This document shows, piece by piece, positions 1 to 32,912 of a stretch of 32,912 nt of DNA (positions within the stretch are counted from its first letter, which is position 1; the number at the start of each line of letters is the position of its first letter). The stretch is taken from IMG/VR virus record IMGVR_UViG_3300032180_000028, positions 1 to 32,912 of that record. One strand, 5' to 3'. Under the pieces are notes generated by a model that saw nothing but the letters and a program-made list of their open reading frames with translations, was not told where the DNA came from and searched no databases. The position numbers and the translations under genes were made by a program. This DNA comes from a virus.

Positions 1-133
1 TTGCAATTGCTAGTGCTATTGCATCAATCGTTAGAAAAACTGTGTTTTCAAATTTTTGAATTATCAAATTACCTGGCTGAGAAGCCGCCCAAGGGCCTGA
101 CCAGGAAAATGAGACATTATGCTCTTCATAATT
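1..133. repeat. Left copy of the terminal overlap (matches 32780-32912)
   Basis: Bases 1-133 match 32780-32912 with a single mismatch (T at 7, C at 32786). The repeat lies inside one open reading frame that is intact only when the ends are joined. This is what an assembler leaves on a circular or circularly permuted genome, as expected for a headful-packaging P22-type phage. A true short terminal repeat is less likely because it would cut a gene. Confidence 0.9.
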
Positions 134-949
134 AGAAATTGTTCCACTATCTGGTGTTAGATCCCATTTAATACCACCTTTAACAATTACTGGAACAGCA
201 GCTTTTCCTAATTCAACAGAAATAGCCGATAAGCCACCTATAACTAATGGGATTGGACCTCCATCGGCATATTTTTCAATTCTATTAGTTTTAATACCAG
301 TAGTTGTAAGCGCTGTATCTTGTCCAATAAAAGTAAGGCCATCATAGAGGCCATGCATATTAATTGCCGTTCCTGGTCCTGTATTAGTAAAATTATTAGT
401 AATAATAATTGAAGGGAAAAAAACTCCTGCTGCTCCACCCCCAATAGTAATTGTACTTGTCTGATTATTACCAAAAAACATAAAGTCTGCTGGATTAATG
501 CCTTCATAAATATTATTTTTAATCCCATTAGCCGTTAATACAGAAGGGATATTTACGGGTGCGGTTACAGATCCAATAGTAATTGGGGCGGTTTGAGCTG
601 GACCAAAAAACATTGGATCCGATGGGGAGATTCCATTGTAAACATTAGCTTTAATTCCACCTGGAAATACATCATCTGATGATGTGTCAAGCGCTATAGG
701 ATTTAATGCAGTTACTAATCCTGCTGTAAAAGCAACTGGCGCTAACATAGATGTAACCCAAACAATATCACCAACTTGAACAGTTGTATCATCTGAAGCT
801 AATCCGAAAAAAGCAGGAAAATAACCTGGGGCTAACATAGCCGTTAAGGTATCGGTATCACTGATATAAGAATGAACTGCTGAAGTTACTACAGCATTTT
901 GAGAATTGAAAGTACCACGATTAAACTGCATTCTTGAAAAATTAAACAT
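1..949 (-). CDS. Putative tail adhesin, N-terminal 316 residues (continues at 32912-32544)
   Basis: Starts at ATG 949 behind a strong GGAGG (about 957-961) and stays open to the window edge. Because 1-133 equals 32780-32912, the gene continues there and the joined protein is about 394 aa. Residues 28-80 are a module with the motif PGYF (41-44), shared with the proteins at 1575-2213 and 32262-32516. Residues 98-126 and 142-170 are near-repeats (GIK.N.Y.GI.P.D.MFFG..QT..ITIG). Residue 284 on (SGPWA) begins a second module shared with 1575-2213 and 17165-17587. No catalytic motif is seen. Its place after tail fibre and lysozyme genes suggests a virion surface or receptor-binding protein; that role is inferred. 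Base 7 gives Ile where the other copy (32786) gives Val. Confidence 0.8.
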   Translation of the reverse strand, partial: MFNFSRMQFNRGTFNSQNAVVTSAVHSYISDTDTLTAMLAPGYFPAFFGLASDDTTVQVGDIVWVTSMLAPVAFTAGLVTALNPIALDTSSDDVFPGGIKANVYNGISPSDPMFFGPAQTAPITIGSVTAPVNIPSVLTANGIKNNIYEGINPADFMFFGNNQTSTITIGGGAAGVFFPSIIITNNFTNTGPGTAINMHGLYDGLTFIGQDTALTTTGIKTNRIEKYADGGPIPLVIGGLSAISVELGKAAVPVIVKGGIKWDLTPDSGTISNYEEHNVSFSWSGPWAASQPGNLIIQKFENTVFLTIDAIALAIA

Positions 950-1020: not shown

Positions 1021-1578
1021 TCAAATATTTTCAACGTCATATCTTTTAATAAGAATATTAAAAAATAATTCTCTGTTTTTTAATCCATTTAAACCGCCAT
1101 TAATACGTTTTGTTATATCAATGATATTGTCATGATCAGATAAATTATTTAATTTTTGACGTTTCCAATATTCGCAGGCAACATGAGTCCCACTGTCCAT
1201 ATCTAATAATAAATCAGGAAAATTAATTAAATCTTTTCCTATAAGATTTCCAAACAAATCATAATTCGCTCTTCCGCTTAATTGGATTATTCCCCTTCCT
1301 TTATATTTATAACCATCACCTTTTTTAATATTTCCTAATGAGTGGCCTATCTTAGTTTCAGGCTCATATTTTGAGCAATATTCTTGACCGCCTAATTCTT
1401 TAAAAAATATAAAACCACCAGTTTCATGAGCACATTGAGAAATAAAATAACATATTCTCTTTTTATTATTTATTTCATAAATAGGTAAATATTTATTAAA
1501 AGCTATTATTAATTTATTTAATATTTCTGATTGAGCATTTGCATGGCAAACATTTCTTAAAAATTTTTCTTTTATCAT
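1021..1578 (-). CDS. GH19 chitinase-like endolysin (lysozyme)
   Basis: 185 aa. It carries the glycoside hydrolase family 19 pattern used by phage endolysins: AHETGGF with the catalytic acid candidate E52 after H51, a second acidic residue at about E61 in KELGG, then GYKYKGRGIIQLSGRANY and, near the C-terminus, TKRINGGLNG. It should cleave the glycan strands of host peptidoglycan. No signal peptide or membrane segment is visible, so export would depend on a holin; the holin candidate is far away at 31662-32210. The start ATG overlaps the stop of the upstream gene by 4 bases, so translation is probably coupled. Family assignment is firm; the exact catalytic pair is inferred from the family. Confidence 0.92.
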   Translation of the reverse strand: MIKEKFLRNVCHANAQSEILNKLIIAFNKYLPIYEINNKKRICYFISQCAHETGGFIFFKELGGQEYCSKYEPETKIGHSLGNIKKGDGYKYKGRGIIQLSGRANYDLFGNLIGKDLINFPDLLLDMDSGTHVACEYWKRQKLNNLSDHDNIIDITKRINGGLNGLKNRELFFNILIKRYDVENI

Positions 1579-2213
1579 GTAGTTCTATATTTCACGGATT
1601 GAGTAGGAAATCCAGCGGTTCCGCCAATAGAAAATGCAGTCGCGTCTAATCTGAAAACTTTTACAGAACCATCTGTTTTTAATTCTAAATGACCAATTTC
1701 AGAAATTGAATTATCCATTATTTCAAATGGAACAATTACATCATAAAGTGGGATTGATCCGGCAATAACAGGCGATGTAAATGAAATAAATGGACCTCCG
1801 GTTGAAACATCAAATCCAGATGGAACAGTCATTAAGCATTCGTGACCTTGCTGAACAAAATCAATTAAAATAGGAATATTTGCAGCCCATATTCCAGAAT
1901 ATTCATTACTTTGTGTTGTAATTAATTCTGTAACAAGATTTGATGGAAAATCAAAAAATGCTGTGAATACAACTGGCTCTAAAGATGAAACAATAGCAAA
2001 AACATTATTATCACTTCCCATTAATGAAAAAATATCATGAACTCTGGAATTTAATGGGTCTTGTCCAAAAAAATCAGGGAAATAACCTGGAGTTGCAATT
2101 GTTGAAATCGTATCATCAGTACTGATATAAGTATTATAGGAAGGCGCGTCATCATAAGAAGTTGAATTATAAGCGCCCCTCGATAAGAATAAATTTGAAG
2201 ATTGAAATGCCAT
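1575..2213 (-). CDS. Putative virion adhesin with PGYF and SGxWA modules
   Basis: 212 aa. The N-terminal part (about residues 28-90) has the module ISTDDTI..IATPGYFPDFFG also seen in the 949-1 gene. The rest begins with YSGIWAANIP and ends GGTAGFPTQSVKYRT, matching the layout of the C-terminal module of the 949-1 gene (SGPWA to FPLGVSY) and of 17165-17587. The composition (G, T, S, F-rich, beta-like) suits a trimeric virion surface protein. It lies between the fibre/100-aa genes and the endolysin. Known phage proteins with a DT.......GYF module lie in virion operons, but I cannot name a function. Confidence 0.75.
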   Translation of the reverse strand: MAFQSSNLFLSRGAYNSTSYDDAPSYNTYISTDDTISTIATPGYFPDFFGQDPLNSRVHDIFSLMGSDNNVFAIVSSLEPVVFTAFFDFPSNLVTELITTQSNEYSGIWAANIPILIDFVQQGHECLMTVPSGFDVSTGGPFISFTSPVIAGSIPLYDVIVPFEIMDNSISEIGHLELKTDGSVKVFRLDATAFSIGGTAGFPTQSVKYRTT

Positions 2214-2240: not shown

Positions 2241-2543
2241 TTAAACACCGCCAAAAACAAATATTCCAGTAGCAGTCGTAGATACATCAATTGTTTTTCC
2301 TACAGCCCAATATTGTATTCCAGGAATACAAGCTGGCATTGTAAATAACTGATCACCGGTATCAACAATAGTAACATCGCCGCCTACTCTAATCATAAAA
2401 GAACTAAATATAAATGGAACTTCAACACCAGGTGTAACGGCAGCAGTTAATCCGTGTGAAGCAAATCTTCCTATTCCACCCGATCCACCCCTTCTATTAG
2501 AAGGTTGAATTCTTGTTACTGGATAAGATCCATTAATTGACAT
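2241..2543 (-). CDS. Small probable virion protein, 100 aa
   Basis: Unrecognised. N-terminal 30 residues are basic and glycine-rich (RRGGSGGIGRFASHG), the rest is beta-prone and ends in IFVFGGV. It sits in the tail gene string directly after the fibre gene, with 11 bases between them, so a fibre- or adhesin-associated role is likely. No catalytic residues, signal peptide or membrane segment. Confidence 0.65.
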   Translation of the reverse strand: MSINGSYPVTRIQPSNRRGGSGGIGRFASHGLTAAVTPGVEVPFIFSSFMIRVGGDVTIVDTGDQLFTMPACIPGIQYWAVGKTIDVSTTATGIFVFGGV

Positions 2544-2554
2544 ATAAATATTCC

Positions 2555-4141
2555 TTATAATTTAACAAAAAAGAAAACGGGTAATGATTGTTGAATAATT
2601 GAAAAAGGTGTTCCAGAACCAGTTGATGTTGTTGTATAAGTTGTTGCTGGAGGATTCCAATTAATGAGTGGATTAGATATATTACCAACACGAGTCCCTG
2701 GAGCTCCAGTTCTACCAAGAACTGTAACATCATGTGTATGAGCCGCTAATTCTGCAATAGTTAAAGTATGTGTTTTTGAACCTGCCGCTACACCAGCAGT
2801 GAAGAATACACTTCCAAAAGCATTAACAAGTATATAGTCTGTAGTAACTACTTGTGTCATTCTCTTATTAGCGTTGAAATCCGCTAATGCAGAAACGCCT
2901 CTTCCACCAGAAACAGGAAAAATAGCATTAGAAAAACTCTGCCACCAAAATAAATAAAGGCTTCTGTATTGTATTCCAGTAAAATCAGCACCCGATCCTG
3001 TATTACCAATAGAAATACCAGATTGCAATCTTAACCATCCAGGCCTATCTGTTCCTCTAAAACTTTGCATTATATCGCCAGTTTCAAATACATTATGAAC
3101 ATTTGATTCTATTTTTGTATAAACATCTGATTGTGTTTCATAAAGATAAGTTGGAGGGATTACAGTGCCTCTCACCCCCATGACATTAGTGATTTGATAA
3201 GTACCTAATGATCCAATTGGCATACGTATGCCAATTTCAAAAATGTCATTATTATCTATTCCCCTAGCTTTTCCAGCCGTTGACGGAACTACAATTGAAG
3301 TCGTAATTTTACCAAAAACGCCAGCAGGCCATACAAAAGGAAATGTCACCTCAACATCAGCAGAAGGCGCGCCACCTGTTCCAAAAGATTGACGTACAAA
3401 TACAACCGATCCCACTCCAACAGGAGCCGCTCCACTAGCATTTGCTTCAAATTGAAATGTAATTTGCTCATTTTGAAATGTTTTTACATCTCCGGATATA
3501 AATGTCATATCCATACGAGAACCAACACCAGGTGCGGTACATTGATATGTTAAAATTCCTCTTGGATTTGAATCTGGAGATGTAGAACTTAAAGAAGGTT
3601 GCTGAACCGCTAGCGTATCAACATTACCTACTAAATCTTTTATAACAAACCATCCGCCTTCAACAGTTGTATCTATTGCGCCATTAAAATAAGCAATAGA
3701 TTGAATTTCAGTTGATGCAATAGGAATTGGAAACAATCCATTCCCTAATGAATGAAATGTAAATTGTCCATCAATAACAAAATTATTAAGATCATTAAGA
3801 ATAGTTATCGGACCACCACCGCCTCCGCCAGATATAGGGTAATTATCAATAGTGTAATTACTTAATAAATCCCCTTGCGCGGTATAAACTTGTAAAAAAT
3901 ATAAATCAACGCCATTTAATTCCCAATAAAATGGTCCTTGTGTTCCATTATCACCAAAGACAATACCGCCATTAGCATCTAATGGATAAGGAATCATTCC
4001 AGCAGGATCTTGAAATACATTCTTTACAGCTTGATGATCTAAGCTAGAACGAGGATATAAAACACAATTAGCAGCAGGCTTCCCATCATTATCCAAAATA
4101 ACCCAAATAGGAATTGGCGCTAATATAAAAGTTGATGCCAT
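2555..4141 (-). CDS. Tail fibre/collar-domain protein
   Basis: 528 aa. The N-terminal about 105 residues (PIPIWVILDNDGKPAANCV, FYWELNGVDLYFLQVY) resemble the head-proximal domain found in many podophage tail proteins. A poly-glycine linker (about 106-111) separates it from a long beta-rich shaft. The C-terminal about 170 residues look like a phage tail collar domain: GDIMQSFRGTDRPGWLRL, then AHTHDV, a serine/glycine/threonine stretch and the typical ending QQSLPVFFFVKL. It probably forms a trimeric fibre contacting the host surface. There is no endorhamnosidase-like region as in the P22 tailspike. It is the largest tail gene and precedes the adhesin-like genes. Confidence 0.82.
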   Translation of the reverse strand: MASTFILAPIPIWVILDNDGKPAANCVLYPRSSLDHQAVKNVFQDPAGMIPYPLDANGGIVFGDNGTQGPFYWELNGVDLYFLQVYTAQGDLLSNYTIDNYPISGGGGGGPITILNDLNNFVIDGQFTFHSLGNGLFPIPIASTEIQSIAYFNGAIDTTVEGGWFVIKDLVGNVDTLAVQQPSLSSTSPDSNPRGILTYQCTAPGVGSRMDMTFISGDVKTFQNEQITFQFEANASGAAPVGVGSVVFVRQSFGTGGAPSADVEVTFPFVWPAGVFGKITTSIVVPSTAGKARGIDNNDIFEIGIRMPIGSLGTYQITNVMGVRGTVIPPTYLYETQSDVYTKIESNVHNVFETGDIMQSFRGTDRPGWLRLQSGISIGNTGSGADFTGIQYRSLYLFWWQSFSNAIFPVSGGRGVSALADFNANKRMTQVVTTDYILVNAFGSVFFTAGVAAGSKTHTLTIAELAAHTHDVTVLGRTGAPGTRVGNISNPLINWNPPATTYTTTSTGSGTPFSIIQQSLPVFFFVKL

Positions 4142-6814: not shown

Positions 6815-7467
6815 TATAATAAATTCCTCAAGAAGTCTAATCCTGGAATATGACTTGCAAAATTAAGCCCTCCACCAAATAATCTATTTAATGCTTGTGC
6901 TCTTGCGGTGTCTTCATTATATTGTGCGGCGCCTTGTTGTTGTAAATCATTTGCTAGATTTCCACCTGTTCCATAACGCCAATTTCCAATTTGTCCTCTT
7001 GCACCATACTGTTGGGCAGATTCATTTCCTGCTAAACCGCCAAGTTGACCAAGATAATTACTTCGTATTCCAAGAAGTTTATTAATATAATCTTGTTGAT
7101 CTGCCGATGTAATATTTTGAGCATTTTTCTGTAATTCTTGCATTTCTGCGCCACTTCCATGCATACCACTTGCAGCTTCAGCAGACCTAATTGCATTCAT
7201 GCCAGCTTCAGTTTGTGTTTTTGCTAATGGAGATTGTTGATAAGTCGCTGCTAATTGATTATATAAAGCAGCAGGATCAGCGCCACCAGCAATTGCTTTT
7301 TGATATTGCTCCATTAATGGAGAGCCTTGAGTATAAGGAGATAAAGCTTGTTCAGCCTGCCTTTCCCAATCAGTTCTTGCACCAGAACCTTGGCCAATAT
7401 ATTTTCGTAAATCTTCATATCCTTTTTGTTGACCACCACCAAATAAGGTATCAATCACGCCTCCCAT
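6814..7467 (-). CDS. gp7-like DNA ejection protein
   Basis: About 217 aa from ATG 7467, which has a GGAGG four bases upstream; the frame is open further up but only to a TTG. The start MGGVIDTLFGGG, the Q/A/G-rich body (LSPYTQGSPLMEQYQKA, PAALYNQLAATYQQSP) and a helical C-terminus match the style of P22 gp7-type internal proteins, and the length is near P22 gp7 (229 aa). It should be carried in the head and released with DNA into the host envelope. It overlaps the end of the GNAT-like gene by 13 bases. Confidence 0.6.
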   Translation of the reverse strand: MGGVIDTLFGGGQQKGYEDLRKYIGQGSGARTDWERQAEQALSPYTQGSPLMEQYQKAIAGGADPAALYNQLAATYQQSPLAKTQTEAGMNAIRSAEAASGMHGSGAEMQELQKNAQNITSADQQDYINKLLGIRSNYLGQLGGLAGNESAQQYGARGQIGNWRYGTGGNLANDLQQQGAAQYNEDTARAQALNRLFGGGLNFASHIPGLDFLRNLL

Positions 7468-7919
7468 ATAGCCTCCAAAAAACAATATTCACTATTACGA
7501 TTTATAATCACAAAACCCGCTCTCATTGCAAAAAAAATAGATTTTTTATTTTCAACTTTTATACGCGTATACAACTTATTTGGATTTATTTCAGTGAAGA
7601 ATTTTTTCTTTGCCATTAACGCTAATTTATAAGCAAATTTACCACGTATTTCATTAACAAACCCAATATCTACCCAATAAATTCCACTTGAATCAAATAT
7701 TTCACTTACATTATGTAATATGCATATTCCAATTGGATCATTGTCTATTTTAAATAAATAAAATATGAATTTTTCATTATCTAATTTATTTTCTTGATAA
7801 AGATAATTCTCAGATAACAATCCTTTAATAATATCTTCATCAAATATTAATCTTTCTAATATTTCAAAATCTCTACTTTCAATAACTTCTAAGCAGCGAT
7901 TGGAGCAAACGTCACCCAT
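7455..7919 (-). CDS. GNAT-like N-acetyltransferase inside the virion gene cluster
   Basis: 154 aa with the GNAT layout: a beta strand FIFYLFKIDNDPIGICIL (51-68), then VDIGFVNEIRGKFAYKLAL (83-101) whose R-G-K-x-A resembles the acetyl-CoA loop R/Q-x-x-G-x-G/A, and the C-terminal NKKSIFFAMRAGF (124-136), the usual N..S...A...GF segment. The loop is not perfect, so activity is uncertain. It occupies the slot between the gp10-like/127-aa genes and gp7-like gene, where P22 has gp14. It overlaps the upstream gene by 31 bases, and its start has only an AGAGAAG ribosome site, so a slightly later start is possible. Confidence 0.65.
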   Translation of the reverse strand: MGDVCSNRCLEVIESRDFEILERLIFDEDIIKGLLSENYLYQENKLDNEKFIFYLFKIDNDPIGICILHNVSEIFDSSGIYWVDIGFVNEIRGKFAYKLALMAKKKFFTEINPNKLYTRIKVENKKSIFFAMRAGFVIINRNSEYCFLEAIWEA

Positions 7920-10870: not shown

Positions 10871-12118
10871 TTATGAAATTGCACTAACAATTCTAACCGC
10901 ATAATCTTGATGGAATTTATAACCAGCTAAAAATTCAACTCGGAATAAATCAAGACCATTTATTGGATCGAATGCAATGCTAATACGCAATGAAATTCCA
11001 CTATCTTTATCCATAGCAATTCCAACTTCTGGCGCATGAATACGTGCCATTGGAGGCATTACTAATGAAAGTCCACGAGATGTATAGGCATAGCTGATTC
11101 GATAACGAAGGCCTGCACCTAATAAATTAACTGGAGCATTTAATGGAATATTTTGACTAACATTTCTACGGTTATTAGCTGGATCACTGATAATAGCTGG
11201 AGAAATAGGAATAATTGCATTACCACCAGCATCCGCATTTACATCAGCTTGAACAACAAATGTCATTAATTGACCTGTTGATTGACGGCTAACTTTATTA
11301 ACAGATTCAACCGCAGTAGCAGTTCCAAATGTTCCAAATGAAATGATATCGCCAGCTCTATAAACACCAACAGCTAAAGCAGTTAATCCACTTACAGAAA
11401 TTGAGGTAGCACCAGAAGCAGGAACAACGCTCACTACTGGAGTTCCAGCACCAGAGCCCGCTTGATGAATAACAGTTGCAGGAGTTTGGTATAAATTAAA
11501 TGCAGAATATCGACCTAATTGTGATTCAAAAGAAATATCTGTATTTAATGTTTGATTGAATGCATTTTGATTGGTTGCTTTTAATGCTGTCGCATCTCTT
11601 GGAGACAACAAAAAGCTATTTGCAGCAGCGGTTGGCATACCAAGCTCAGTCATTTGAGCATATGCAATATCAACCATTGAAAAATCAGAAATTAAGCTTG
11701 TTGGTGAACCAACAACATAATTCACATCTAAAACACCTGATTGCATAATATCTCTTTCAAGCGTAGAGACTAAATTAAGAATTCTCGGTGAAACATATCG
11801 TTGCTGATATCGTGGCGCATTTTTTGTAACTTCCAAAGTTAATTCTTTAGAATCAAATTGCCATGAATTTAAATATTCAGGTCCAATCGTTAATGGAACT
11901 GTTTCTTCATTAATGTCTTCTGGAACCGCAATACGACCACGTGTAGTCGTTCCGAAATTTTGTTTACGAATTTGAACCGTTAATCCAGATTGATAGGTTT
12001 GATCCATAAAATCTGTTTCAAATGATCTATCAGCGGTAAAAATACATGGGGAATTAAATTGGAATTCTGCTAGTGATAAGTCAGAAACTAACTGACTAAA
12101 TGAAATAGTATTTGGCAT
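10871..12118 (-). CDS. Major capsid (coat) protein, P22-like
   Basis: 415 aa against 430 for P22 gp5. It opens MPNTISFSQLVSDLSLAEFQ, with the HK97-fold spine in NLVSTLERDIMQSG and RDATALKATNQ, and an inserted domain around residues 220-305 (PASGATSISVSGLTALAVG, GDIISFGTFGTATAVESVNK) at the place of the telokin-like I-domain of P22 coat. The C-terminus DLFRVEFLAGYKFHQDYAVR is typical. It should form the T=7-type shell around the scaffold. The gene has its own structured leader (12166-12196) and GGAG ribosome site. Confidence 0.92.
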   Translation of the reverse strand: MPNTISFSQLVSDLSLAEFQFNSPCIFTADRSFETDFMDQTYQSGLTVQIRKQNFGTTTRGRIAVPEDINEETVPLTIGPEYLNSWQFDSKELTLEVTKNAPRYQQRYVSPRILNLVSTLERDIMQSGVLDVNYVVGSPTSLISDFSMVDIAYAQMTELGMPTAAANSFLLSPRDATALKATNQNAFNQTLNTDISFESQLGRYSAFNLYQTPATVIHQAGSGAGTPVVSVVPASGATSISVSGLTALAVGVYRAGDIISFGTFGTATAVESVNKVSRQSTGQLMTFVVQADVNADAGGNAIIPISPAIISDPANNRRNVSQNIPLNAPVNLLGAGLRYRISYAYTSRGLSLVMPPMARIHAPEVGIAMDKDSGISLRISIAFDPINGLDLFRVEFLAGYKFHQDYAVRIVSAIS

Positions 12119-17164: not shown

Positions 17165-17587
17165 TTATGAAGTAAATTGAGGATGAGGAGTTTGCCTAAT
17201 AAATTTTAGGTGTATAGGATCATTTCCAGTAGAACCCGCGCCTGCAAATACAGCCAAATTTGGAGATAATCCAATTCTTATTATTCCGCTACTTATTTCA
17301 AGATAAGTCATTAAAGCTACTAAGACCCCATTATTTATACCAAATGCAGCTTCCCTTTCTCCATCCGGAGAGATAATATCTGTTTTTATTGGAAGTAAAT
17401 TAGATGGAAGCGGCTTCAATGATTGTATAACTGAAGGATTATTTGCTGCAGCTATCATCCTTGGAATAAAGATAGAAATTAAGGATTGTTGCTCAACAAT
17501 TGTAAGCTCAACTTTTTGATTAACTGCCCAAGGACCAGAAAATTCCATTGGAAATTGAAATCGATTCTCTTGTACATAAATTCCCAT
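17165..17587 (-). CDS. Free-standing SGPWA-module protein, 140 aa
   Basis: First gene of the late block. Residues 14-32 (MEFSGPWAVNQKVELTIVEQ) match the start of the C-terminal module of the junction-spanning adhesin (WSGPWAASQPGNL) and of the 1575-2213 protein (YSGIWAANIPI). The body is beta-rich with glycine turns. So it is that module alone, far from its relatives. A decoration or receptor-binding subunit seems most likely; function is inferred from kinship only. Confidence 0.65.
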   Translation of the reverse strand: MGIYVQENRFQFPMEFSGPWAVNQKVELTIVEQQSLISIFIPRMIAAANNPSVIQSLKPLPSNLLPIKTDIISPDGEREAAFGINNGVLVALMTYLEISSGIIRIGLSPNLAVFAGAGSTGNDPIHLKFIRQTPHPQFTS

Positions 17588-31661: not shown

Positions 31662-32210
31662 ATGACTACATTTAAGGAAGTAATCTCATCTGCAATGCCC
31701 TTCATCGGGTCGTTGTTAGGTGGACCTTTAGGTGGCAAAGCTGGCGAAGTTTTAGCGGAAGCTTTAACGGGATCAAAAGGAGCTTCTCAAGAAGAAATAG
31801 ATAAAGCTATCTTATCAATAACCCCCGATAAGTTACTTGAGCTAAGAAAACTTGATGAGCAATATAAGCAACAACTACTTTCTGCTAAAGTGGAAAGTCT
31901 CAGGATTGAAACTGAAGATAGAGATAGTGCGAGAAGAACCCAAGTCAGTAATGCGAAGGCTAATTCCCTGAACATGCCGGCTGTTTTATCGTTAATCATT
32001 ATTCCAGGTTTCTTTGTAATTTTATTAATAATAATGCTTCATCCGATACAAGAGTCCTCGAGATCTGTTATTGATTTATTAATTGGTTTCCTAGGCGGGG
32101 CTATTGGACAGGTGATAGCATTTTATTTTGGTACAACTAGCGGGTCTTTGGAAAAGACCCGCCTTATGCTTAGTAATTTTGTAGAAATAAAAAAGCCACT
32201 TCCTAAATAA
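31662..32210 (+). CDS. Holin (3TM/GTA type)
   Basis: 182 aa. N-terminal amphipathic, glycine-rich stretch (AMPFIGSLLGGPLGGKAGEV), a long acidic helix in the middle (LLELRKLDEQYKQQLLSAKV), and two clear membrane spans at about 106-126 (PAVLSLIIIPGFFVILLIIM) and 136-156 (VIDLLIGFLGGAIGQVIAFY) followed by FGTTSGSLEKT. This is the layout of the 3TM holin family (GTA_holin_3TM). It should make lesions for endolysin release. It ends the early plus block, and its last codons form one arm of the terminator. The endolysin is on the other strand, across the junction. Confidence 0.8.
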   Translation: MTTFKEVISSAMPFIGSLLGGPLGGKAGEVLAEALTGSKGASQEEIDKAILSITPDKLLELRKLDEQYKQQLLSAKVESLRIETEDRDSARRTQVSNAKANSLNMPAVLSLIIIPGFFVILLIIMLHPIQESSRSVIDLLIGFLGGAIGQVIAFYFGTTSGSLEKTRLMLSNFVEIKKPLPK

Positions 32211-32224
32211 AGGTAAGTGGCTTT
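32192..32224. terminator. Bidirectional intrinsic terminator
   Basis: AAAGCCACTT/AAGTGGCTTT (32192-32201 with 32215-32224) is continued by CCT/AGG to 13 pairs with one bulged T and loop AAATAA. Minus strand reads on into TTTTTTAT, plus strand into TTTGAG. It separates the holin transcript from the end of the late block. Confidence 0.8.
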
Positions 32225-32261: not shown

Positions 32262-32516
32262 TTAAAATAACCAGGTAATAGCGACTGGTGCGACGGCTGT
32301 AATAGTACCTAAATTATAGCCGTCGCTTGCAATAGCAACAATTGTATCATTTACCAATACAAGTCCTTGTGTAAATCCAAAATGATCAGTGAAATAACCT
32401 CCTCCCTTAATGGTAGCCATTAATTCTGATGGATTGTTATATCCATTAGGCTTAGGTTCATTTGGAACATTTGGAATCGTTCTTGACTTTTGAAATTTAG
32501 TTTTATCATATGCCAT
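32262..32516 (-). CDS. PGYF-like module alone, 84 aa
   Basis: AGGGGG lies eight bases before ATG. MAYDKTKFQKSRTIPNVPNE and then SELMATIKGGGYFTDHFGFT match the first module of the adhesin-like proteins (TIATPGYFPDFFG). It ends in ITWLF with a beta-like body. Last gene of the late block, one short gap after the junction-spanning adhesin. Probably a small virion or decoration protein. Confidence 0.7.
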   Translation of the reverse strand: MAYDKTKFQKSRTIPNVPNEPKPNGYNNPSELMATIKGGGYFTDHFGFTQGLVLVNDTIVAIASDGYNLGTITAVAPVAITWLF

Positions 32517-32543
32517 TTTTTTAACCCCCTAAAAAAATTTAAA

Positions 32544-32912
32544 TTATGTTGCTTTATTATAAGAAACACCTAATGGAAATGCTCCGGTAAGTCCAAGGCC
32601 TGTAAATAATGTTCCGTTATAAGCAGTCGTGTAAGTTAAATCGCCATTTGTACCTACAGCTAAGCTCCCAGCGATAGCTCCTCCATTATCAGTTACACAT
32701 GTGATGAAATTTTTCTGGCTAATTGGTCTTGCAAAAGCAGGAATAATTCCAGGGGCAGTAATCGCTTGTCCTGCAATAGTTGCAACTGCTAGTGCTATTG
32801 CATCAATCGTTAGAAAAACTGTGTTTTCAAATTTTTGAATTATCAAATTACCTGGCTGAGAAGCCGCCCAAGGGCCTGACCAGGAAAATGAGACATTATG
32901 CTCTTCATAATT
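32544..32912 (-). CDS. Putative tail adhesin, C-terminal 122 residues (from 949-1)
   Basis: Second part of the gene entering from base 1; residues 273-394 of the joined protein, of which the first 44 are the terminal overlap. Holds the SGPWA module: SGPWAASQPGNLII, then VATIAGQAITAPGIIPAFAR and the end TGLGLTGAFPLGVSYNKAT. Pattern is that of a beta-sandwich tip domain. See the first entry for the whole protein. Confidence 0.8.
   Translation of the reverse strand, partial: NYEEHNVSFSWSGPWAASQPGNLIIQKFENTVFLTIDAIALAVATIAGQAITAPGIIPAFARPISQKNFITCVTDNGGAIAGSLAVGTNGDLTYTTAYNGTLFTGLGLTGAFPLGVSYNKAT
32780..32912. repeat. Right copy of the terminal overlap (matches 1-133)
   Basis: Same 133 bases as at the start with C at 32786 instead of T at 7, so Val instead of Ile in the adhesin. 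Supports a closed or permuted genome of 32,779 unique bases. Confidence 0.9.

What the first reader, a model, noticed from the sequence alone, without database searches (positions are those of the whole stretch)
32262..32912. A shuffled adhesin family built from a PGYF module and an SGxWA module
Four proteins share two building blocks. 32262-32516 has PGYF (as GGYF) only; 1575-2213 has PGYF then SGIWA; the junction gene (949-1/32912-32544) has PGYF, an insert, then SGPWA; 17165-17587 has SGPWA only, 17 kb away at the head of the late block. Such mix-and-match around the tail genes suggests interchangeable receptor-binding or decoration subunits.
Basis: partly seen in the sequence, partly recalled or inferred. 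Interest (0 to 1): 0.62.

Follow-up and report, generated by a model that had tools for sequence, protein, structure and literature searches.

The report
Phage surface spikes from two modules
A small uncultivated phage builds four of its proteins from two reusable parts, one related to a known phage capsid-associated protein and one to a virophage protein resembling the receptor-binding heads of viral spikes, so they are probably surface spikes and coat pieces, a new set of a known kind.

Summary
The window is a circular, P22-like short-tailed phage, and four genes of its minus-strand late block (A 32262-32516; B 1575-2213; J, intact across the circle junction, 949-1/32779-32544; D 17165-17587) share two modules. 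PGYF homology is strong: held-out profiles find each protein at E 1e-12 to 1e-17. SGxWA homology is not significant pairwise, but a profile made without D finds D (E 4e-7; 24.5 bits against 8.3 for the best of 2000 shuffles). New here: PGYF is homologous to the N-terminal module of "orf16", solved in equal copy number with a phage major capsid protein (PDB 9eg4); SGxWA is homologous to Zav_19 (7qrj), a virophage protein sharing the fold of the trimeric marseillevirus capsomer cap, with weaker links to trimeric viral receptor-binding heads. J is anchor + repeat shaft + knob, B anchor + knob, A anchor only, D knob only. A relative, L024, keeps E-B-lysin-J-A in the same order, so the shuffling is old and inherited; the main architectural difference is the shaft repeat number. 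Most likely these are virion-surface spikes and decorations. Head or tail location, trimerisation and receptor binding are inferred, not shown.

The parts
32262..32516 (-). A: stand-alone PGYF module (84 aa), last gene of the late block
   Evidence: ortholog L024:2596-2850 with PGYF intact
674..949 (-). J residues 1-92: N-terminal PGYF module of the junction gene (gene runs 949-1 then 32779-32544)
   Evidence: start fixed by L024
125..673 (-). J residues 93-275: shaft-like insert; tandem repeats at 536-658 and 404-526 (23 of 41 aa identical, 44-aa spacing); the relative J' has only one of these two repeats
   Evidence: repeat score 114 against a maximum of 44 in 1000 shuffles
1..112 (-). J knob, first part (SFSWSGPWA..., J residues from 280), continues at 32779-32544
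32544..32779 (-). J knob (SGxWA module), C-terminal part and stop codon
   Evidence: J,J' against Zav_19: hhalign 95.9%
1938..2213 (-). B residues 1-92: PGYF module
1575..1907 (-). B residues 103-212: SGxWA knob
17165..17587 (-). D: stand-alone SGxWA knob (140 aa), upstream of the small ORF and terminase
   Evidence: (Zav_19 E 0.0069 alone)
2241..2543 (-). E: 100-aa protein next to B, kept in L024 (shares neither module); neighbour only
1021..1578 (-). GH19-type endolysin between B and J (neighbour, same order in L024)
2555..4141 (-). separate tail-fibre/collar-like protein (weak Gp10_C and tail fibre phrog matches; neighbour)

Best explanation
The four genes encode virion-surface proteins assembled from an N-terminal anchoring module (PGYF) and a C-terminal trimeric beta-barrel knob (SGxWA). 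J is a spike: anchor, repeat shaft, knob. B is a short spike without shaft. A is the anchor alone, acting as a small decoration that occupies the same kind of site. D is a knob alone. The anchor most likely sits on the capsid shell, as orf16 is expected to do; the knobs point outward and contact the host surface or its glycans. Shown: homology of the modules, architectures, conservation in a relative. Inferred: presence in virions, trimers, head location, receptor contact.
For: PGYF: held-out profiles E 1e-12 to 1e-17; profile hit to 9eg4 orf16 residues 32-90, E 1.4e-5. 9eg4 has 7 chains of 'Phage major capsid protein' and 7 of orf16, and in phage contig L025 the orf16 homolog directly follows the capsid gene. 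SGxWA: D found at 3.8e-7 by a D-free profile; Zav_19 E 3e-11 by profile and E 0.0069 by D alone. Zav_19 shares its fold with the trimeric capsomer cap of marseilleviruses (PMC11936420). tblastn of the Zav_19 domain against phages finds only Lactococcus phages, the listed matches being receptor-binding proteins of the 936 group, E 2e-3. Foldseek: D matches reovirus sigma1 heads and Zav_19, B matches Zav_19 and lactococcal receptor-binding heads. All four genes are in the late structural block with terminase, portal, coat and ejection genes. Same order and architectures in L024 for B, J and A.
Against: Structure models are poor (pLDDT 48 and 57; TM-scores below 0.5), and the model of D used an alignment with B and J' knobs, so fold agreement is not independent. 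The link to 936 receptor-binding proteins runs through Zav_19; the direct profile match is weak (8.5-15.7 bits). The window's capsid protein is of the P22/Sf6 type, not that of 9eg4, and B, J and A are not next to it. No proteomics.
Confidence: 0.6

Rival explanations
1. The spikes sit on the tail, not the head: B, J and A are tail-fibre or appendage proteins, and PGYF is an attachment module for the tail or the collar fibre.
For: Genes follow the ejection genes and the fibre/collar-like gene 2555-4141 and surround the endolysin. In a Lactococcus 936-type phage the receptor-binding gene lies directly before holin and endolysin.
Against: The only solved PGYF relative is in an entry with equal numbers of capsid protein chains. 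Related genes lie next to capsid or head genes in L025 and L009.
Confidence: 0.3
2. They are passive capsid decorations (cement or caps) that stabilise the shell, with no receptor binding.
For: Zav_19's fold-mates cap capsomers, and the marseillevirus cap protein is among the most abundant in the virion (PMC11936420, PMC13119691). A is a bare PGYF module. The phage has a separate fibre gene.
Against: J carries a repeat shaft that varies in length between relatives, as expected of a projecting spike. The knob resembles sigma1 and lactococcal receptor-binding heads.
Confidence: 0.25
3. D is an unrelated or repurposed late protein whose SGPWA is a coincidence or serves a non-virion role.
For: D is about 15 kb or more from the others, between terminase genes, has no relative in the contigs searched, and pairwise similarity is marginal.
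Against: D-free profile E 3.8e-7, shuffles far lower; D alone matches Zav_19 collinearly over residues 11-129.
Confidence: 0.07

Closest known systems
orf16 of PDB 9eg4 (phage capsid structure, 7 major capsid chains + 7 orf16 chains)
   Same: PGYF module at the N-terminus, residues 32-90, E 1.4e-5; similar short N-terminal arm; followed by a linker and a C-terminal domain
   Different: Its C-terminal domain is not SGxWA; its homolog's gene lies directly after the capsid gene (L025); capsid protein of another lineage
Zav_19 of Zamilon virophage vitis (7qrj) and the marseillevirus capsomer cap (NMV_189 7qrr, Jyvaskylavirus ORF121)
   Same: SGPWA domain over about 115 residues; J,J' knob hhalign 95.9%; D alone E 0.0069
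   Different: Those are proteins of eukaryotic virophages and giant viruses, whose capsids are of another type; no PGYF module is known there from this work
Receptor-binding heads of lactococcal phages p2, TP901-1 and the 936 group (adenovirus fibre / reovirus sigma1 type)
   Same: C-terminal beta-barrel head after anchor and shaft; LPxxxRP-like stretch shared with Zav_19, J, J'; Foldseek matches
   Different: Direct sequence match weak; anchor and shaft unrelated; trimer and saccharide binding untested
Phage head fibres and decoration proteins in general (phi29 head fibre, phage L Dec; from memory)
   Same: Projecting or coating capsid proteins
   Different: No sequence relation tested

Membership tests
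Trimeric receptor-binding head (lactococcal RBP / adenovirus knob / sigma1 type) | beta-barrel head fold | tested here: inconclusive
   Foldseek matches with low-confidence models
Trimeric receptor-binding head (lactococcal RBP / adenovirus knob / sigma1 type) | sequence homology to a characterised receptor-binding head | tested here: inconclusive
   Only through Zav_19 (E 2e-3, 35 Lactococcus records)
Trimeric receptor-binding head (lactococcal RBP / adenovirus knob / sigma1 type) | C-terminal position after an anchor and a shaft | tested here: met
   J: anchor, repeat shaft, knob; B lacks the shaft; D lacks anchor and shaft
Trimeric receptor-binding head (lactococcal RBP / adenovirus knob / sigma1 type) | homotrimer; receptor or saccharide binding | not testable with these tools
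   needs biochemistry or complex prediction
Zav_19 / NMV_189 cap domain | sequence homology across the domain | tested here: met
   E 3e-11 by profile, 4e-11 without D, E 0.0069 for D alone
Zav_19 / NMV_189 cap domain | trimer seated on capsomers | not testable with these tools
   literature for marseilleviruses only
orf16-type capsid protein (9eg4) | N-terminal PGYF module | tested here: met
orf16-type capsid protein (9eg4) | homology over the full 269 aa, C-terminal domain included | tested here: not met
   only the N-terminal module aligns
orf16-type capsid protein (9eg4) | gene directly after the capsid gene, as in L025 | tested here: not met
   capsid gene 10871-12118; modules at 32262-2213 (across the junction) and 17165
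orf16-type capsid protein (9eg4) | 1:1 stoichiometry with the capsid protein | not testable with these tools
   no virion data

The most novel reading that the evidence does not exclude
The phage shell is studded, through one shared anchor module, with a mixed population of bare anchors, short knobs and long shafted knobs (plus a free knob), so the head itself is a tunable multivalent adhesive surface; and the same knob domain was exchanged between bacterial phages and virophages or giant viruses, where it caps capsomers.
Probability: 0.25. Interest if true: 0.62.

Novelty: new variant of a known kind. Interest (0 to 1): 0.42.

Why it matters
None of the four has a significant match in Pfam or PHROGs, and no isolated phage in the 50,697-record collection matches those tested (B, D, J), so they would be left as hypothetical proteins. 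Linking one module to a solved capsid-associated protein and the other to a virophage protein turns them into testable surface spikes. It also joins by sequence, not only by fold, a phage protein domain to Zav_19 of a virophage, and so bears on whether capsid caps and phage receptor-binding heads share ancestry.

Tried and rejected
Scans of IMG/VR with B, D, J, A and family alignments found only L024; alignment A1 had no stretch conserved enough to search with. tblastn of B, D, J and J' against phages: no match; the 59-aa fragment of orf16 matched neither phages nor plasmids. Pfam and PHROGs: nothing significant for the four. J' alone against PDB: nothing. The paper describing 9eg4 was not found, so the position of orf16 is inferred from chain counts. 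hhalign between J, B and D subfamilies directly is weak (16-31%), because each is one or two sequences; Zav_19 serves as the bridge for J and D, while B against Zav_19 alone is weak (1.6%). The tree of PGYF modules is unresolved (most inner branches open); orthology of A, B and J with L024 rests on order, architecture and identity. Rejected: chance resemblance (held-out and shuffle tests), and an assembly artefact at the junction (L024 is collinear). The first row of alignment A2 carries a typing slip near its start (TLIPDSG for DLTPDSG); the held-out work used the correct sequence and reached the same Zav_19 match.

Full report
WHAT IS THERE. The window is a virus record of 32,912 bases whose ends repeat each other over 133 bases with one mismatch, so it is a circular map. 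The late genes run on the minus strand: D, a small ORF, terminase, portal, scaffold, coat, head-completion, ejection proteins, a fibre/collar-like protein, E, B, endolysin, J, A. The coat protein matches the Sf6/P22-type gene 5 protein, so this is a P22-like short-tailed phage. A is the last gene of the block and D stands at its head.

OBSERVATION. The four proteins were re-derived. PGYF: blastp and phmmer connect A-B and B-J; each protein is also recovered by a profile from which it and its ortholog were left out (A 1.8e-12, B 1e-17, J 9e-15). SGxWA: pairwise scores are marginal, but a D-free profile finds D at 3.8e-7 with 24.5 bits, against 8.3 bits for the best of 2000 shuffles of D; held-out J (0.01) and B (0.015) are weak on their own. 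No fifth member was found in the window.

A RELATIVE. L024 is a 10-kb contig with E', B', endolysin, J' and A' in the same order. Identities: B 60%, J 54%, A 64%. The modules of different genes are only about 20-30% alike. So the three architectures existed before the two phages parted. A' has a canonical PGYF, which explains the GGYF of A as a local change. J' is 52 residues shorter mainly because it lacks one of two tandem 41-residue repeats in the insert (23 of 41 identical; score 114 against at most 44 in 1000 shuffles). A repeat array whose copy number differs between relatives is what a fibre shaft would show; that reading is inference. The contig does not reach the terminase region, so whether the relative has D is unknown.

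PGYF MODULE. A seven-member profile finds one PDB sequence with a significant score, 9eg4_H 'orf16', E 1.4e-5. The capsid gene of L025, a phage contig filed under an archaeal MAG, matches 9eg4_A 'Phage major capsid protein' at 6e-112, and the next gene matches orf16 over all 269 residues. Seven chains of each in one entry fit one orf16 per coat protein in a T=7 shell; I could not find the paper, so this is inferred. With orf16 added, the profile also finds a 266-aa protein between portal and scaffold in L009 (E 2.7e-4). So the module recurs in head gene clusters.

SGxWA MODULE. The profile finds one strong PDB sequence, Zav_19 of Zamilon virophage vitis (7qrj), E 3e-11; D alone finds it at 0.0069, collinear over its length. 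A paper states that the trimeric beta-barrel cap on marseillevirus capsomers (ORF121) shares its fold with NMV_189 (7QRR) and Zav19 (7QRJ) (PMC11936420); the melbournevirus paper reports the cap candidate as about as abundant as the coat protein (PMC13119691). tblastn of the Zav_19 domain against 50,697 phage records returns 35 records, all Lactococcus phages; the listed ones are annotated as receptor-binding protein (E 2e-3). Models of D and B are weak (pLDDT 57 and 48), yet Foldseek ranks Zav_19 first or second and otherwise lists reovirus sigma1, lactococcal receptor-binding heads and adenovirus fibre heads, a set already known to share a trimeric head fold (PMC3893620). The alignment behind D's model contained B and J' rows, so this is supporting, not independent.

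MECHANISM. The simplest reading is a spike system: PGYF fastens, the repeat insert lengthens, SGxWA forms the outward trimeric knob. J is long, B short, A a bare fastening unit, D a bare knob that may bind elsewhere or join the others. Shown: homology, order, architecture, conservation. Inferred: virion location, head rather than tail, trimer, receptor contact.

NOVELTY. Both modules have relatives of known structure, so this is not a new kind. The combination of a capsid-protein module with a virophage/receptor-binding-type knob, and four proteins using the two modules in four ways in a 33-kb phage, was not found in the families searched: a new variant of a known kind. Interest is moderate because function rests on remote homology.

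Noticed in passing
L025:4952-6646: A phage contig with portal, coat and orf16-like genes is filed in a MAG labelled Candidatus Nitrosotalea (archaeon); probably mis-binned, or the host label deserves a check.
   Followed up: partly
L009:14387-15187: A 266-aa PGYF-type protein with a different C-terminal domain lies between portal and scaffold genes in a phage whose terminase is 52% identical.
   Followed up: partly
window 32192-32224: Ten-base stem AAAGCCACTT...AAGTGGCTTT with a T-run on the minus strand, between A and the convergent gene 31662-32210; a likely terminator of the late block, with a loop too long for the terminator scan.
   Followed up: no
window 7455-7919: A GNAT acetyltransferase-like gene lies inside the head/ejection gene cluster (weak Pfam and PHROG matches).
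   Followed up: no
window 2064-2090 and 803-829: The PGYF-coding DNA of B and J is 89% identical over 27 bases, although the modules are only about a third identical in protein; a possible old recombination seam or codon constraint.
   Followed up: no
window 2241-2543: The 100-aa protein E, kept next to B in L024, has a glycine-rich N-terminal part and ends TTATGIFVFGGV; it may be another small surface protein.
   Followed up: no
window 7 and 32786: The two copies of the 133-bp terminal repeat differ at one base, which changes Ile to Val in J.
   Followed up: yes
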